The translations under genes and the position numbers were made by a program. The notes below the pieces were generated by a model, which made no database searches, was not told the origin of the DNA, and was given only the letters and a program-made list of their open reading frames with translations. From IMG/VR virus record IMGVR_UViG_3300025073_000048, positions 1 to 64,000 of that record: a stretch of 64,000 nt of DNA. One strand, written 5' to 3'. Each line of letters begins with the position of its first letter. The first letter of the stretch is position 1. This DNA is from a virus. Positions 30,382 to 61,851 of the stretch are shown piece after piece.

Positions 30382-30471
30382 CTCTTTACAGCATGGCGGA
30401 AGTTTCCTACATTGGACGACTGGTTCACCACCATTTCTGTCCAATCCAAGACCGTTCCAGGAGGAACCGCC

Positions 30472-31341
30472 ATGCAAACATTGTCACGGCGTCCAATGGC
30501 GTTCGGGTACGCCCGCGTCAGCGACATGAAGCAAATCCAGCAGAACGACAGCGTCCCGATTCAGCAGGACCGCATCGAGTCGTACTACAAATTCAAGCTC
30601 GCGCCGAAGGGGGTCGACTTCGGGGGAATCGAGTGGGACCCCTGGGGCGTATCGGCTTTCAAGCAACCCTTTCATCGGCGTGAAGCGGCCAAGCGCCTGA
30701 TGAGCATCATGCAGCCGGGCGATCATATGATCGTCGACAAGATCGATCGCTTAACACGCCGCATTCGCGATCTGTATTCCGTCACCGACTGGATGGAAAA
30801 GCACCAAATCTCCCTGCACGTCTGCACGTTCCTGGGAACGGACATGGATTTCTCGACTCCCGTTGGTGCGCTCATCTTCGGTGTGTTCGGGCTGTTGGCT
30901 GACTTCGAGTCGAAACAGATCTCCGAGCGGCAGAACACGCACAATTCTGCCTGCCGCGCCAAGGGACTGTGCATCAGCAAGTACCCGGCGCCCGGCACGG
31001 AGTATTACTGGAAGAAAGGCCAGGACGGCAAGAAACGCCGCTATGCCAAGTGGTCCGCCACTGATCGCGCCATCATGGCTGAGCTGGTCATCTTGCGTGA
31101 GCAGGCGCATCTGAGTTGGGATGAGATCTCCGACACGATCGAGATTCACCTCGCGCAGCAGAATGGGAGGCAGTTCAAGAAGTCGGCGTTTTACCAACGT
31201 CGCTGGCCAAGGGAAAAATGTAGACGCGCCTATGTCGTCGAGAAATACTACCAGGATCACAACATCCGCGACGTGACGGAGATCCCTGCTTCTCTCGGAA
31301 TCTTGGCTGACAAGCACGCGAAGGCCAATCACTACAAGTGA
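30472..31341 (+). CDS. Serine site-specific recombinase
   Basis: About 289 residues from ATG 30472, chosen for its perfect AGGAGG. N-terminal resolvase/invertase catalytic domain: AFGYARVSDMKQIQQND contains the catalytic Ser after YAR; VDKIDRLTRRIRDL is the conserved D-x-I-D-R-L-x-R segment; FGVFGLLADFESKQISERQN is the conserved long-helix region. The C-terminal part (about 110 residues) is basic and probably DNA binding. Could integrate the phage genome, resolve multimers or invert DNA. No attachment site was identified. Confidence 0.88.
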   Translation: MQTLSRRPMAFGYARVSDMKQIQQNDSVPIQQDRIESYYKFKLAPKGVDFGGIEWDPWGVSAFKQPFHRREAAKRLMSIMQPGDHMIVDKIDRLTRRIRDLYSVTDWMEKHQISLHVCTFLGTDMDFSTPVGALIFGVFGLLADFESKQISERQNTHNSACRAKGLCISKYPAPGTEYYWKKGQDGKKRRYAKWSATDRAIMAELVILREQAHLSWDEISDTIEIHLAQQNGRQFKKSAFYQRRWPREKCRRAYVVEKYYQDHNIRDVTEIPASLGILADKHAKANHYK

Positions 31342-55031: not shown

Positions 55032-55082
55032 GGTCACTACTCCTAAAACTTCACATGTGTTGAAAAACACACTCACAGCGGA
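55032..55082. other. Short flank with small hairpin
   Basis: On the minus strand this 51-nt gap contains a 6-bp TGTGTT/AACACA hairpin and the ribosome binding site of the SMC-like gene. It borders the outer end of array 1. No promoter is clear on the plus strand. Confidence 0.45.
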
Positions 55083-56054
55083 TGATTCGATCCGCGATTA
55101 TGGTTGCTCTCTACCAAGATGGTTCAATCTCCTTGTTTGAATGCGTTCCGAGCACTTGTTTCAGTCGGGTGGCATGACTACGCTCATACTGTTTGGTTCA
55201 CTCATCTTTCGAGGCTGCGCTCACGGGAGGTGATTCAATCTGCCGTTCGAAGAACATGTTTCAATCAGCTTGCATGCCTACGTTCACTACATTTGGTTCA
55301 ATCACGAGTCCTGACTACGTTCAAGATCGCTGATTCAATCGGCACGCATGACTGCTCTCGTGATATCTGTTGCAATCTTCAGGTTTGGATGCGCTCAACA
55401 CTGCTGGGTATCTGCGGGCTTGACTTCACTCCGCCTTGATGATTCTGTCGCCGGACTTGATTGCGTTCACGACCAATGATTCTCTCCGAACGTGTGACTA
55501 CGCTCCTCCCACCTGGTTCAATCTGGGCAGATGGCTGCGCTCACGCCCATTGGTTCTATCCATCGAAATGGCTTCGCTCACGTGGTTTGGTTCGTTCGAC
55601 TTCTTAGGCTGCGATCACCTGACGTGTTTCATTCACAGCCCTCTGTCTGCGATCCAGCAACTTGTTTCAGTTCGAGAACTTGGCTGCGATCTCCAAAAAT
55701 GATTCTGTCCGGCGCCATGTCTGCGATCGGCGGTGTTGATTCAGTCACACATTTTGTCTGCGATCGGGCGTTTTGGTTCAGTCTTGCCAGATGGCTACGC
55801 TACTTCGATCGGATTCAATCCCAAGCTTTGGCTACGTTCCTTGCATATGCTTCAATCAAGTCAACTGGCTGCGATCACACATCCTGTTTCTATCTCAAGG
55901 ACTGTCTTCTCTCAGCGAAATTGTTTCAATCTATCCTTTTGGATACGATCAACCCAATTGCTTCTTTCAGGAATGCTGGCTGCGCTTATACACTGTGGTT
56001 CACTCACACTACATTTGCTGCGCTCTCACACTCCGATTCAATCGCGTGTGATGG
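55083..56054. repeat. TIGR-like guide array 1 (37-nt units, 27 A half-repeats)
   Basis: Written on the plus strand, each unit is half-repeat A, consensus TGNTTCANTC (10 nt); 8 variable nt; half-repeat B, consensus TGNCTRCGNTC (11 nt); 8 variable nt. A half-repeats start at 55083, 55120, 55157, 55194, 55231, 55257, 55294, 55331, 55368, 55405, 55440, 55477, 55514, 55551, 55588, 55625, 55663, 55700, 55737, 55774, 55811, 55848, 55885, 55922, 55959, 55996 and 56034. Steps are 37 nt except for 26, 35 and two 38s. The 8-mers differ and are bounded by invariant TC and TG. The last B half-repeat runs into the tas stop codon. This two-spacer, 36-37-nt architecture is that of TIGR arrays, whose RNAs guide Tas proteins. 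Confidence 0.9.
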
Positions 56055-58253
56055 CTAACCCGCGTCCTCATCCGACGCATCTTCCTCGACCTCTTCACGA
56101 GTCTTGCGTGTAATACGCTCTCCCTCGCGCAGATCCTTCAGAGACTTGCCTGTCATCGCAAACGGCCAGTTTGGAATCTCAATAAAGTGCCGGTGATCGC
56201 CCTCGCAGTGCTCGAACACGTAAGGCACGGGCGGCTCCGTCCCGAAGTAATCCACGTGCATGACGTGATGCAAGTGCGACAGGAAGATCTTCACCGCGAA
56301 CCGGCGCGCTCGTGCATGCAGGTGCCCTGGAGGCAGCGTACCGTCCTTGTAGTGCTTGTACGCCTCCGTTGTCTTGCCGACCTCGTGCATACGCACTGCC
56401 GCCAACTCAGCGAACTTCTTCTCACCGTTCGCCGCGACCTCCGCGTCCTTCCGTTGACGATAGAGCTGGCCGTAAATAGCTCCCTCTTTGTTCTGCGTCT
56501 TCACGAAGCACTCCCCAATCTTGAATGCGCAGTTATGGACTGCGATACCATCGGCGACATAGCTTTCGTCCTCTTCTACCTCCAGGTTGTAAACAGGACC
56601 AGTGTATGGAACTGATTCGGGTGGGTTCAACTGAAGCCATACACCGTCTGGTTGCCACTTAGAAACATTCGATGATTTCCATTCAACTGATTCATCACAC
56701 AGAATTTGTTTCCCGAATAAATCTCGGTCGTGTACTTCAATGTGATATGCAGTGTTCCCAGCGGGTAGAATCCGCGAGCTAAGACCACTGACGATTCCGC
56801 ACCGCAAAAGCAATTCCTGAATCTGAATAGCAAGAGTCAGGGAAATGGTTCCATAAGAAACTGTCTCTGATGTGTAGTGCCCATTTCCTTCAAATAACCC
56901 TCGCAGCAATGAACGGCACAGAGAAATGTCCATCGACATCCAGTTATTAGGAATATGTTTGTTTGCTGAATAGACACCAAATAGCTTATTGAACGACTCG
57001 GACAGAAGTGATGAACATGCTTTGACACAGCACCCATCATCACACTTGCTCATAGAAAGGCTGCTATCAAGGCCAAACACATACTTAAACACAGCCCTTA
57101 CGTGGTCATGCAAAACAGTTTCTTTTTTGTGAAACGCGAACTGCACAACCCCGTCGCTGCCAGCACACCCCTCTGCGATAAACAATCCGACAAAGCGAGC
57201 TATTTCTCCGTTAAGCTCTACACGTGTCGGCACACGAGAAGCGACCGGAGATCTATCAAGATAAGATTCACACTCGATCGCCGGGATAAATCCTTCACTT
57301 GGAATAACGGGGACCTTTACCATCCACCCAGGCTGCAATTCAGACGCGTTAATCCAATCCTGTCCGTAATTGAAGTTTTCCTTGGATCTATTCTTCCCTC
57401 GCACTATCATGCTTACGCCTCCCTGTGAGTAACCAGTTGATTCACCAATTTCACGCAATGTCTTACCCTCTTGGCGCATGCGAATCATCTGCGAAGCGAC
57501 CTCATTTCTACCGTTTGGAGTAGAAGCTCGCGTCACCTTAAATCGTTTCCGCCCTTCTCCTTCGTAAAAACACACTGGGACTTTGTCGGCGAGAACAGGG
57601 TGGTTGGGAGTAAGAAGTGGTCCGCGCGCGGCTAGTCCGCGACATGTCAGATGCACCAGCGATCCCGTGAAGTCATTCTCAATGACGTGCGTAACCTTTC
57701 TCCACCGTCCGAGATGAGTCAACACGAGATCACCAATACGCACAGAGTCAATTGGAATAGTCCCTCGCTTTGTGATTACGAGAGTTGTTGGATGACAGCA
57801 CAGAATCTTCAGGCGCGCATTCCAGGGACGGCGTGTCTTCGGCTCCCACTTCATCGTTGGGTCGAGTCCAGCAAATCGCCAGAAATGCCCTGCCGTCTTG
57901 CAGCGGGACACGTCCAAGTGAGACAGCAGACCAGCCGAAATGACCGGCCCAATACCGACCTGACTCATCATCCACTGACCCACCGAGTACGTCTCCGAGA
58001 ACGCCTTGAGCGATCGCTTAATCGCGTTCTCCACACGTGTCATTTCATCATTCACCCATTGCAACACTCGCCCCGGTTCCTTCGTCCCAAGCGACCGCAG
58101 TTGACCAGCAGTCGCAATCCGGTACTTCTGCATCGTGTAGTAGTTATCCACCAGAAATCGCACCTGCGCGCGATCCATCAGACCTGCCGCTGTGACTAAG
58201 TCTTTGGTGAGCTTGCGTGCAATTTCGATCGGTTCGTCAAAGGTCTTGTCCAT
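56055..58253 (-). CDS. tas: Tas-like (IS110/Nop-type) protein split by an intein
   Basis: From ATG 58253 (MDKTFDEPIEIARKL), 732 codons including a 423-codon intein; the spliced protein would be 309 residues. Extein N-part: helical, then GIGPVISAGLLSHLD and GHFWRFAGLDPTMKW, the conserved core of the IS110 Transposase_20 / Nop-like domain. The C-part continues AFKIGECFVKTQNKEG...YRQRKD. There is no DEDD/RuvC or HNH nuclease, so it looks like a nuclease-free TasA-type member. It is flanked by the two guide arrays, the stop touching array 1. Presumed role: RNA-guided DNA binding using array-derived RNAs; evidence is architecture, not experiment. Confidence 0.85.
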   Translation of the reverse strand: MDKTFDEPIEIARKLTKDLVTAAGLMDRAQVRFLVDNYYTMQKYRIATAGQLRSLGTKEPGRVLQWVNDEMTRVENAIKRSLKAFSETYSVGQWMMSQVGIGPVISAGLLSHLDVSRCKTAGHFWRFAGLDPTMKWEPKTRRPWNARLKILCCHPTTLVITKRGTIPIDSVRIGDLVLTHLGRWRKVTHVIENDFTGSLVHLTCRGLAARGPLLTPNHPVLADKVPVCFYEGEGRKRFKVTRASTPNGRNEVASQMIRMRQEGKTLREIGESTGYSQGGVSMIVRGKNRSKENFNYGQDWINASELQPGWMVKVPVIPSEGFIPAIECESYLDRSPVASRVPTRVELNGEIARFVGLFIAEGCAGSDGVVQFAFHKKETVLHDHVRAVFKYVFGLDSSLSMSKCDDGCCVKACSSLLSESFNKLFGVYSANKHIPNNWMSMDISLCRSLLRGLFEGNGHYTSETVSYGTISLTLAIQIQELLLRCGIVSGLSSRILPAGNTAYHIEVHDRDLFGKQILCDESVEWKSSNVSKWQPDGVWLQLNPPESVPYTGPVYNLEVEEDESYVADGIAVHNCAFKIGECFVKTQNKEGAIYGQLYRQRKDAEVAANGEKKFAELAAVRMHEVGKTTEAYKHYKDGTLPPGHLHARARRFAVKIFLSHLHHVMHVDYFGTEPPVPYVFEHCEGDHRHFIEIPNWPFAMTGKSLKDLREGERITRKTREEVEEDASDEDAG
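56532..57800 (-). mobile_element. Intein with LAGLIDADG homing endonuclease
   Basis: 423 residues within the tas gene, from Cys (CCHPTTLVITKRG, block A) to His-Asn before Cys+1 (GIAVHN|C, block G). Block B includes LLTPNHPVLAD; block F is VYNLEVEEDESYVADG. Endonuclease motifs: ARFVGLFIAEGCAG (first LAGLIDADG) and LLRGLFEGNG (second). A helix-turn-helix (REIGESTGYSQGGVSMIVRG) lies before them. Ends are canonical (Cys1, HN, Cys+1), so splicing is likely. Base codes: Cys1 at 57798-57800, Asn at 56532-56534. The host site is the conserved R-L-K-I-L|C of the Nop-like domain. Confidence 0.9.
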
Positions 58254-58287: not shown

Positions 58288-58842
<555 letters not shown>

Positions 58843-58880
58843 CTTTGGTCTCCTAAGTAAAAGTAAAACGCTCTGGAAGG

Positions 58881-59311
58881 TTGTTAATTCCGAATACTTG
58901 GCTGCATTCCTTGCCATTGGTTCAATCTCAAATATTGATTGCGATCTGGTTCACTGGTTCACTCACCTTCCATGTCTGCGTTCCGAAACTTTGGTTCAGT
59001 CGCCGAAGGTGGCTACACTCGACCCATTTGATTCAATCAACGGTGGTGAGTTCGTTCGGGGGTTTGTGTCATTCATATCTACGACTTCGATCCAGGGATC
59101 TGTTTCAATCTGACTGATAGTCTGCGATCTTCAGATATGGTTCTGTCTGGTCTTCTGTCTCGTTCGAGCTGAATGATCATCTGGCGATGTGACTACGATC
59201 AAGCGGTTTGATTCATTCCTGCTTGATGCCTGCGATCGGCTGCATTGGTTCATTCAAACGATCTGTCTGCGATCTGGATATTTGGTTCCATCACTAACAA
59301 TGGCTACGCTC
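58881..59311. repeat. TIGR-like guide array 2 (12 A half-repeats)
   Basis: Same half-repeats and spacing as array 1: A half-repeats start at 58881 (degenerate), 58918, 58955, 58992, 59029, about 59066 (degenerate), 59101, 59138, about 59174 (short), 59209, 59246, 59283. The last B half-repeat (TGGCTACGCTC) ends at 59311, three bases from the stop codon of the gene at 59314. Variable 8-mers differ from those seen in array 1. On the minus strand this array precedes the Ala-rich gene and tas, and array 1 follows them. Confidence 0.85.
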
Positions 59312-61490: not shown

Positions 61491-61592
61491 TCACTTGCGC
61501 CGTCCAATTCTGTCGCACGCGCTCATCAGCGCGATAAGCAGTAGAAAAGCGAGTCCGCCAAAGAAGGCATCAAGCCACGTCACATTGACCAT
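61491..61592 (-). CDS. Single-TM micro-protein, 33 aa
   Basis: ATG 61592 with GGAGG upstream inside the csrA 3' end encodes MVNVTWLDAFFGGLAFLLLI and ALMSACDRIGRRK: one hydrophobic segment followed by a positively charged tail. It overlaps csrA by 23 bases. Could be a small membrane regulator or holin-like peptide; uncertain but well placed. Confidence 0.5.
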   Translation of the reverse strand: MVNVTWLDAFFGGLAFLLLIALMSACDRIGRRK

Positions 61593-61785
61593 CGCCCACA
61601 CCTCCGTGCTGTTGTTGTGCATCGCGCTCCTTCGCAATCTCAACCTCCAGGCGATTGACCTCGATGTCCTTCGGCGCTTCGATACCCAACCGGACTTTGT
61701 CTTCGCGAATGTCGATCACCATGATCGTGATCAAGCCTTTAGCGATGACGATCTTCTCGCCGACTTTTCGAGACAGGCAGAGCAT
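61570..61785 (-). CDS. csrA: CsrA carbon storage regulator homologue
   Basis: 71 residues from ATG 61785 with GGAGG 7 nt upstream. MLCLSRKVGEKIVIAKGLIT, then DKVRLGIEAPKDIEVNRLEV, carry the CsrA RNA-binding residues (LSRK, RLGIEAP, V-x-R-x-E). A C-terminal Gln/His-rich tail extends it. It binds GGA motifs in mRNA leaders and could control phage or host translation. The many GGAG leaders of this phage are possible targets. Confidence 0.9.
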   Translation of the reverse strand: MLCLSRKVGEKIVIAKGLITIMVIDIREDKVRLGIEAPKDIEVNRLEVEIAKERDAQQQHGGVGDGQCDVA

Positions 61786-61851
61786 AGAGCTACCTCCAAG
61801 CAAACAAAGATTCCTCGCGACCATCAAAGAAAGTCGGCGACGTCAACGCGC

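What the first reader, a model, noticed from the sequence alone, without database searches (positions are those of the whole stretch)
55083..56054. Array 1: invariant dinucleotides border exact 8-nt spacers
Seen: of about 53 variable blocks nearly all are exactly 8 nt, each preceded by TC and followed by TG; repeat position 3 and the base before the final TC vary most. On the minus strand this reads CA-N8-GA, a possible protein or k-turn recognition frame as in box C/D-type RNPs (inference). Irregularities: one 11-nt deletion at 55241-55256, one short A repeat at 55405, and 9-nt spacers at 55635 and 56006.
Basis: partly seen in the sequence, partly recalled or inferred. Interest (0 to 1): 0.8.

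Follow-up and report, generated by a model that had tools for sequence, protein, structure and literature searches.

The report
Phage TIGR guide array beside intein-split TasA
The repeats are a guide-RNA array of the recently described TIGR-Tas kind, carried by an uncultured phage next to the gene for its RNA-guided DNA-binding protein (TasA), which here is unusually interrupted by a self-splicing intein.

Summary
On the minus strand, 55070-56057 holds alternating 11-nt (GAGCGCAGCCA-like) and 10-nt (GATTGAACCA-like) repeats with 54 spacers: 52 of 8 nt, two of 9 nt; period 37. Shuffles give at most 2 linked repeats (51 here).

It is a TIGR array of a TIGR-Tas system (Faure et al. 2025, PMC12045711). 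The 11-nt repeat is the edge, the 10-nt one the loop. The gene ending at the array's start, 56055-58253(-), passes the curated NCBIfam model TIGR_Tas_endo (162.5 bits, cutoff 100) and matches TasR and TasH chains in the PDB. No nuclease domain was found, so it is TasA-type. A second array (58869-59311) lies upstream.

One related phage keeps the repeats, 8-nt spacers, borders and flanking arrays, but shares only one spacer pair (15/16 nt).

Unusual points: a 423-aa homing-endonuclease intein in tasA, absent from the relative; arrays tucked between operon genes without terminators; very degenerate repeats. Guides match neither their own nor the sister genome, so targets are probably foreign. 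New member of a known kind.

The parts
55070..56057 (-). TIGR array 1: 27 units (edge, spacer A, loop, spacer B), period 37, read from high to low coordinates
56052..56057 (-). 5'-truncated edge repeat (TAGCCA) that overlaps the tasA stop codon
55070..55074 (-). 3'-truncated edge repeat (GAGTG) closing array 1
55241..55256 (-). Two 8-nt spacers fused because one 11-nt edge repeat is missing
55397..55420 (-). Unit with short 8-nt loop (AGCCCGCA-GATACCCA-GCAGTGTT); its spacer pair is the only one shared with the related phage (15/16 nt)
56055..58253 (-). tasA gene (ATG at 58253, stop 56057-56055), Nop-domain Tas protein without nuclease domain
57801..58253 (-). TasA N-extein, 151 aa
56532..57800 (-). 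Intein, 423 aa, Hint plus LAGLIDADG homing endonuclease, Cys1 ... HN|Cys
56058..56531 (-). TasA C-extein, 158 aa
58869..59311 (-). TIGR array 2, about 12 units, same repeats, less regular (some 7-nt spacers, one unparsed stretch at about 59150-59190)

Best explanation
The region is a TIGR array of a two-array TIGR-TasA system in the replication operon of an uncultured tailed phage. The array is read from the minus strand together with tasA. It is cut, probably inside each 11-nt edge repeat, into about 37-nt tigRNAs that each carry two 8-nt guides (A and B). A TasA dimer, formed after the intein has spliced itself out, binds the invariant GA/CA ends of edge and loop repeats (box D and box C). 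The RNP binds 16-bp DNA targets of the form A + reverse complement of B, guide A pairing with one strand and B with the other. With no nuclease domain it most likely blocks or bends foreign DNA (a competing element or a host locus) rather than cutting it. Shown here: array anatomy, Tas identity, no recognised nuclease domain, intein signatures, conservation in a related phage, no guide match to the own genome. Inferred from PMC12045711: RNA processing and dual-strand targeting. Inferred only: foreign target and blocking role.
For: Array of two alternating short repeats with 8-nt spacers beside a gene that passes NCBIfam TIGR_Tas_endo at 162.5 bits, cutoff 100. Profile match to PDB chains 9mty_A (annotated as IS110 C-terminal domain protein, taken to be TasR; E 7e-12) and 21kl (TasH; E 2e-4). 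Weak tblastn match (E 9e-3) to Salicola phage CGphi29, the SpTasH source of the paper, which has an array in the same position. The array starts and ends with truncated edge repeats, as reported for TIGR arrays. The related phage L006 has an intein-free TasA flanked by arrays with the same repeats at the same place of a syntenic genome. Guides do not match own or sister genome above the non-cognate control.
Against: No RNA or binding data exist for this phage. No spacer target was found anywhere. Repeats are more variable than the paper describes (conserved within a given locus). The extra edge-repeat pair expected from the TasR structure is only weakly supported (positions 3-9: 37 of 62 pair against 31 expected, p 0.02; p 0.10 on unique repeats). 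No intrinsic terminator follows the arrays. Structure prediction was too poor to add anything.
Confidence: 0.93

Rival explanations
1. Same TIGR-TasA system, but its role is regulation or replication/recombination control of the phage's own DNA, not action on foreign DNA.
For: The arrays sit in the replication operon next to DnaB, an SbcC-like ATPase and a RecE-like exonuclease; TasA has no nuclease; a serine recombinase is also present.
Against: No guide matches its own genome at 0-1 mismatches in the A+rc(B) order with gaps 0-2, and 2-3-mismatch matches look like those of other orders and of the sister genome. Spacers are almost completely replaced between two syntenic phages, unlike a conserved self-regulatory site.
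Confidence: 0.1
2. The tas locus is inactivated: the intein no longer splices, and irregular units and degenerate repeats are signs of decay.
For: One edge repeat lost, one short loop, degenerate repeats, irregular array 2.
Against: The reading frame is open through the whole gene, splice blocks including Cys1 and HN|Cys are present, exteins are 76% identical to the relative, and 52 of 54 spacers keep exact length. The relative without intein has similarly variable repeats.
Confidence: 0.06
3. A box C/D sRNA-like or IS110 bridge-RNA-like system (RNA modification or transposition) that only resembles TIGR.
For: Nop/IS110 domain homology (Pfam Transposase_20, E 6e-4; IS621 chain E 0.35).
Against: The best curated model is TIGR_Tas_endo; TasR and TasH outscore IS110 chains; no DEDD domain was found; alternating edge/loop arrays are the TIGR hallmark.
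Confidence: 0.02
4. A CRISPR array or a protein-coding low-complexity region.
For: Interspersed repeats with variable spacers; open frames of up to 175 aa cross the array.
Against: 8-nt spacers and two alternating repeats do not fit CRISPR; the period of 37 is not a multiple of three, so no constant peptide repeat results; the open frames are on the strand opposite to the operon.
Confidence: 0.01

Closest known systems
TIGR-Tas, TasA type (Flavonifractor plautii FpTIGR; Faure et al. 2025, PMC12045711)
   Same: Solo Nop-domain Tas without nuclease beside alternating edge/loop repeat arrays; truncated edge repeats at array ends.
   Different: 8-nt instead of 9-nt spacers, 37-nt period, 27 units in one array (most often 5-15 in the paper), degenerate repeats, intein in tasA, no terminator because the arrays sit between operon genes.
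Salicola phage CGphi29 TIGR-TasH
   Same: Phage-borne, 8-nt spacers (16-nt target), array next to the gene, homologous Nop domain.
   Different: That protein has an N-terminal HNH nuclease, none here; repeat sequences differ and the period is 36.
Microcystis phage Mvi-JY20 locus (hypothetical protein XAI95461.1)
   Same: Tas homologue (25% identity to L006 TasA, PHROG 4285) followed by a TIGR-like array.
   Different: 9-nt spacers, 36-nt period, terminator-like hairpin after the array, no intein.
IS110/IS621 bridge-RNA transposases
   Same: Related RNA-binding domain and two-part guide (weak Pfam Transposase_20 hit).
   Different: No DEDD catalytic domain found; an array of guides instead of a single bridge RNA.
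Archaeal and eukaryotic box C/D snoRNPs
   Same: Nop domain and box C/D-like borders.
   Different: k-turns, L7Ae and fibrillarin belong to snoRNPs; a DNA rather than an RNA target is expected here.

Membership tests
TIGR-Tas | Array of two alternating 8-12-nt repeats (edge, loop) separated by short spacers of fixed length | tested here: met
   11-nt and 10-nt repeats, 52 of 54 spacers 8 nt
TIGR-Tas | Adjacent Nop-domain Tas protein | tested here: met
   NF052498.1 at 162.5 bits (cutoff 100); 9mty_A E 7e-12, TasH E 2e-4
[quoted passage not shown]
   both repeats start GA and end CA in both phages
TIGR-Tas | Array begins and ends with truncated edge repeats | tested here: met
   TAGCCA at the start of array 1, GAGTG or GAGCG at the array ends
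TIGR-Tas | Rho-independent terminator after the array (typical, not obligatory) | tested here: not met
   none on the minus strand; the array is followed by the next gene's ribosome site
TIGR-Tas | Extra covarying base pair inside the edge repeat (reported for TasR arrays) | tested here: inconclusive
   positions 3-9, p 0.02 on all repeats, 0.10 on unique repeats, none in L006 alone
TIGR-Tas | Processing into RNAs of about 36 nt bound by Tas | not testable with these tools
   needs RNA sequencing
TIGR-Tas | Dual-strand DNA targeting by spacers A and B | not testable with these tools
   needs binding assays; no target found in own genomes
TasA subtype | No HNH or RuvC nuclease domain | tested here: met
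   about 30 residues precede the Tas model; no nuclease hit other than the intein's endonuclease
Inteins (LAGLIDADG type) | Splice blocks with Cys1 and HN|Cys, homing endonuclease, uninterrupted intein-free homologue | tested here: met
IS110 transposase | N-terminal DEDD catalytic domain | tested here: not met
   no such domain found
Box C/D snoRNP | k-turns, L7Ae, fibrillarin | not tested
   none seen among the proteins scanned; k-turns were not modelled

The most novel reading that the evidence does not exclude
TasA activity is gated by protein splicing, and the one spacer pair kept between two related phages marks a conserved foreign (host) target, so this pair of phages could reveal the natural target and timing of a nuclease-less TIGR system.
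Probability: 0.12. Interest if true: 0.75.

Novelty: new member of a known kind. Interest (0 to 1): 0.45.

Why it matters
TIGR-Tas systems were described only in 2025, and their natural targets, spacer turnover and the role of nuclease-less TasA are open questions (PMC12045711). Two related phages with the system at the same place show that repeats and unit length are kept while all but one of about 30 spacer pairs differ, which is useful comparative evidence on spacer turnover. The one conserved pair is a concrete lead to a target. The intein in tasA is not mentioned in the main text of that paper and would make a splice-dependent RNA-guided DNA binder.

Tried and rejected
Self-targets: A+rc(B), rc(A)+B, A+B and B+A with gaps 0-2 against both phage genomes gave nothing above non-cognate pairs; the order A+rc(B) is my deduction from the 8-nt 3' overhangs in the paper. 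The conserved guide pair scanned over viral contigs gave 52 hits, which is no excess (my rough chance estimate, assuming about 45 Gb, is over 100); these loci hold no further exact guide matches, only two one-mismatch ones. Stray single units elsewhere in the genomes (G0 37189, G1 25613) are at chance level. More relatives: TasA and terminase scans of viral and genome collections found only one relative, so the host stays unknown. AlphaFold models were too poor to use (pLDDT 38 and 36), so no fold search was run. A 4-8 pair closing a GNA triloop in the edge repeat was considered and is not supported by covariation.

Full report
What is there. The window is 64,000 of the 69,402 bases of an IMG/VR virus record with phage genes: terminase, major head protein, DnaB, RecE-like exonuclease, RusA. 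On the minus strand, 55070-56057 is an array of alternating 11-nt (consensus GAGCGCAGCCA) and 10-nt (GATTGAACCA) repeats with 8-nt spacers, period 37. 52 of 54 spacers are 8 nt. The array cannot be chance (51 linked repeats against at most 2 in shuffles).

Identity. The layout is that of TIGR arrays (PMC12045711; [quoted passage not shown] Because the array begins and ends with truncated copies of the 11-nt repeat (TAGCCA at 56052-56057, GAGTG at 55070-55074), that repeat is the edge and the 10-nt repeat the loop. The gene 56055-58253(-) directly upstream passes the curated NCBIfam model TIGR_Tas_endo with 162.5 bits against a cutoff of 100. It also matches PHROG 4285 with E 4e-36 and, as a profile with its relative, the PDB chains 9mty_A (E 7e-12; annotated as an IS110 C-terminal domain protein, which I take to be the TasR structure) and TasH (E 2e-4). 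A search with the relative's protein also reaches Salicola phage CGphi29, the source of SpTasH, though weakly (E 9e-3). No nuclease domain precedes the Nop region, so it is of the TasA type. A second array with the same repeats lies at 58869-59311.

Intein. The TasA frame is interrupted after residue 151 by 423 residues that start with Cys, end with HN before Cys, and hit Hint_2, Intein_splicing and LAGLIDADG_3 and intein_Cterm. The related phage has the joined protein without the insert, 76% identical over the exteins. The insertion lies next to conserved residues of the Nop domain, so splicing is presumably needed for activity (inference). The word intein does not occur in the main text of the TIGR-Tas paper; its supplements could not be read here.

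Relative. IMGVR_UViG_3300009285_000883 (L006; 71,638 bases) is syntenic over most of its length and carries tasA flanked by arrays with the same repeats. All regularly placed spacers of its two parsed arrays are 8 nt. It also has a single-unit array at about L006:9148-9195 between two small genes. Between 37 and 30 spacer pairs only one is shared: AGCCCGCA/GCAGTGTT here and AGCCCGCA/GCAATGTT there, 15 of 16 nt, where shuffles give nothing below 3 mismatches. So unit geometry is kept while guides turn over.

Operon placement. The arrays sit tightly between genes of one minus-strand operon. Array 1 overlaps the tasA stop codon and is followed within about 40 nt by the likely start of an SbcC/Rad50-like gene; array 2 starts 2 nt after the stop of the PHROG 3657 gene. 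Array 1 ends in GAGTG; array 2 and both main arrays of L006 end in GAGCG. No intrinsic terminator was found on the transcribed strand, unlike the typical array in the paper and unlike Mvi-JY20. The tigRNAs are thus likely cut out of a polycistronic transcript (inference).

Repeat signals. G1, A2, G5, A7 and C10 of the edge and G1, A2, G5, A6, A7 and C9 of the loop are nearly invariant, and the final A is common to both; the rest varies. 46 of 62 edges and 39 of 62 loops are distinct. The shared GA...CA ends fit box D and box C contacts with a symmetric Tas dimer. The additional edge pair reported for TasR arrays is only weakly visible.

Targets and function. Guides were tested as A + rc(B), the order I deduce from the reported 8-nt 3' overhangs, and in three other orders. 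Neither phage's guides match its own genome or the sister genome beyond the non-cognate control. The CGphi29 guides and the Mvi-JY20 guides (first 100 kb of its genome) do not match their own genomes within two mismatches either. The conserved pair is not enriched in viral contigs by my rough estimate. So targets are most likely foreign, in an unknown host or in other elements. A nuclease-less TasA would bind or bend DNA and so block or reroute it; this last step is inference.

Verdict. Real, well supported, and a new member of a known kind, with an intein-split tasA and operon-embedded degenerate arrays as the unusual points.

Noticed in passing
58288-58917: Imm5-like protein (Pfam PF21805) between array 2 and tasA, with a poly-alanine stretch coded by GCAGCA tandem repeats (58379-58554); the gene order is kept in the related phage.
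   Followed up: partly
L013:4019-5080: Microcystis phage Mvi-JY20, a phage with a named host (Microcystis viridis), carries an unannotated Tas homologue followed by a TIGR-like array (period 36) and a terminator-like hairpin: a tractable system for target searches.
   Followed up: partly
L006:9148-9195: A one-unit TIGR array (edge, spacer, loop, spacer, GAGCG) between two small genes in the related phage.
   Followed up: partly
30412-31341: Serine recombinase (Resolvase N-terminal domain), conserved in the related phage; possible integration or inversion function.
   Followed up: no
61570-61827: CsrA-like regulator encoded by the phage, a few genes upstream on the same strand.
   Followed up: no
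55397-55420 and L006:9533-9556: The rare 8-nt loop repeat GATACCCA occurs once in each phage; in L006 it lies in the unit next to the one with the shared spacer pair. It looks like a trace of recombination or duplication between units.
   Followed up: no
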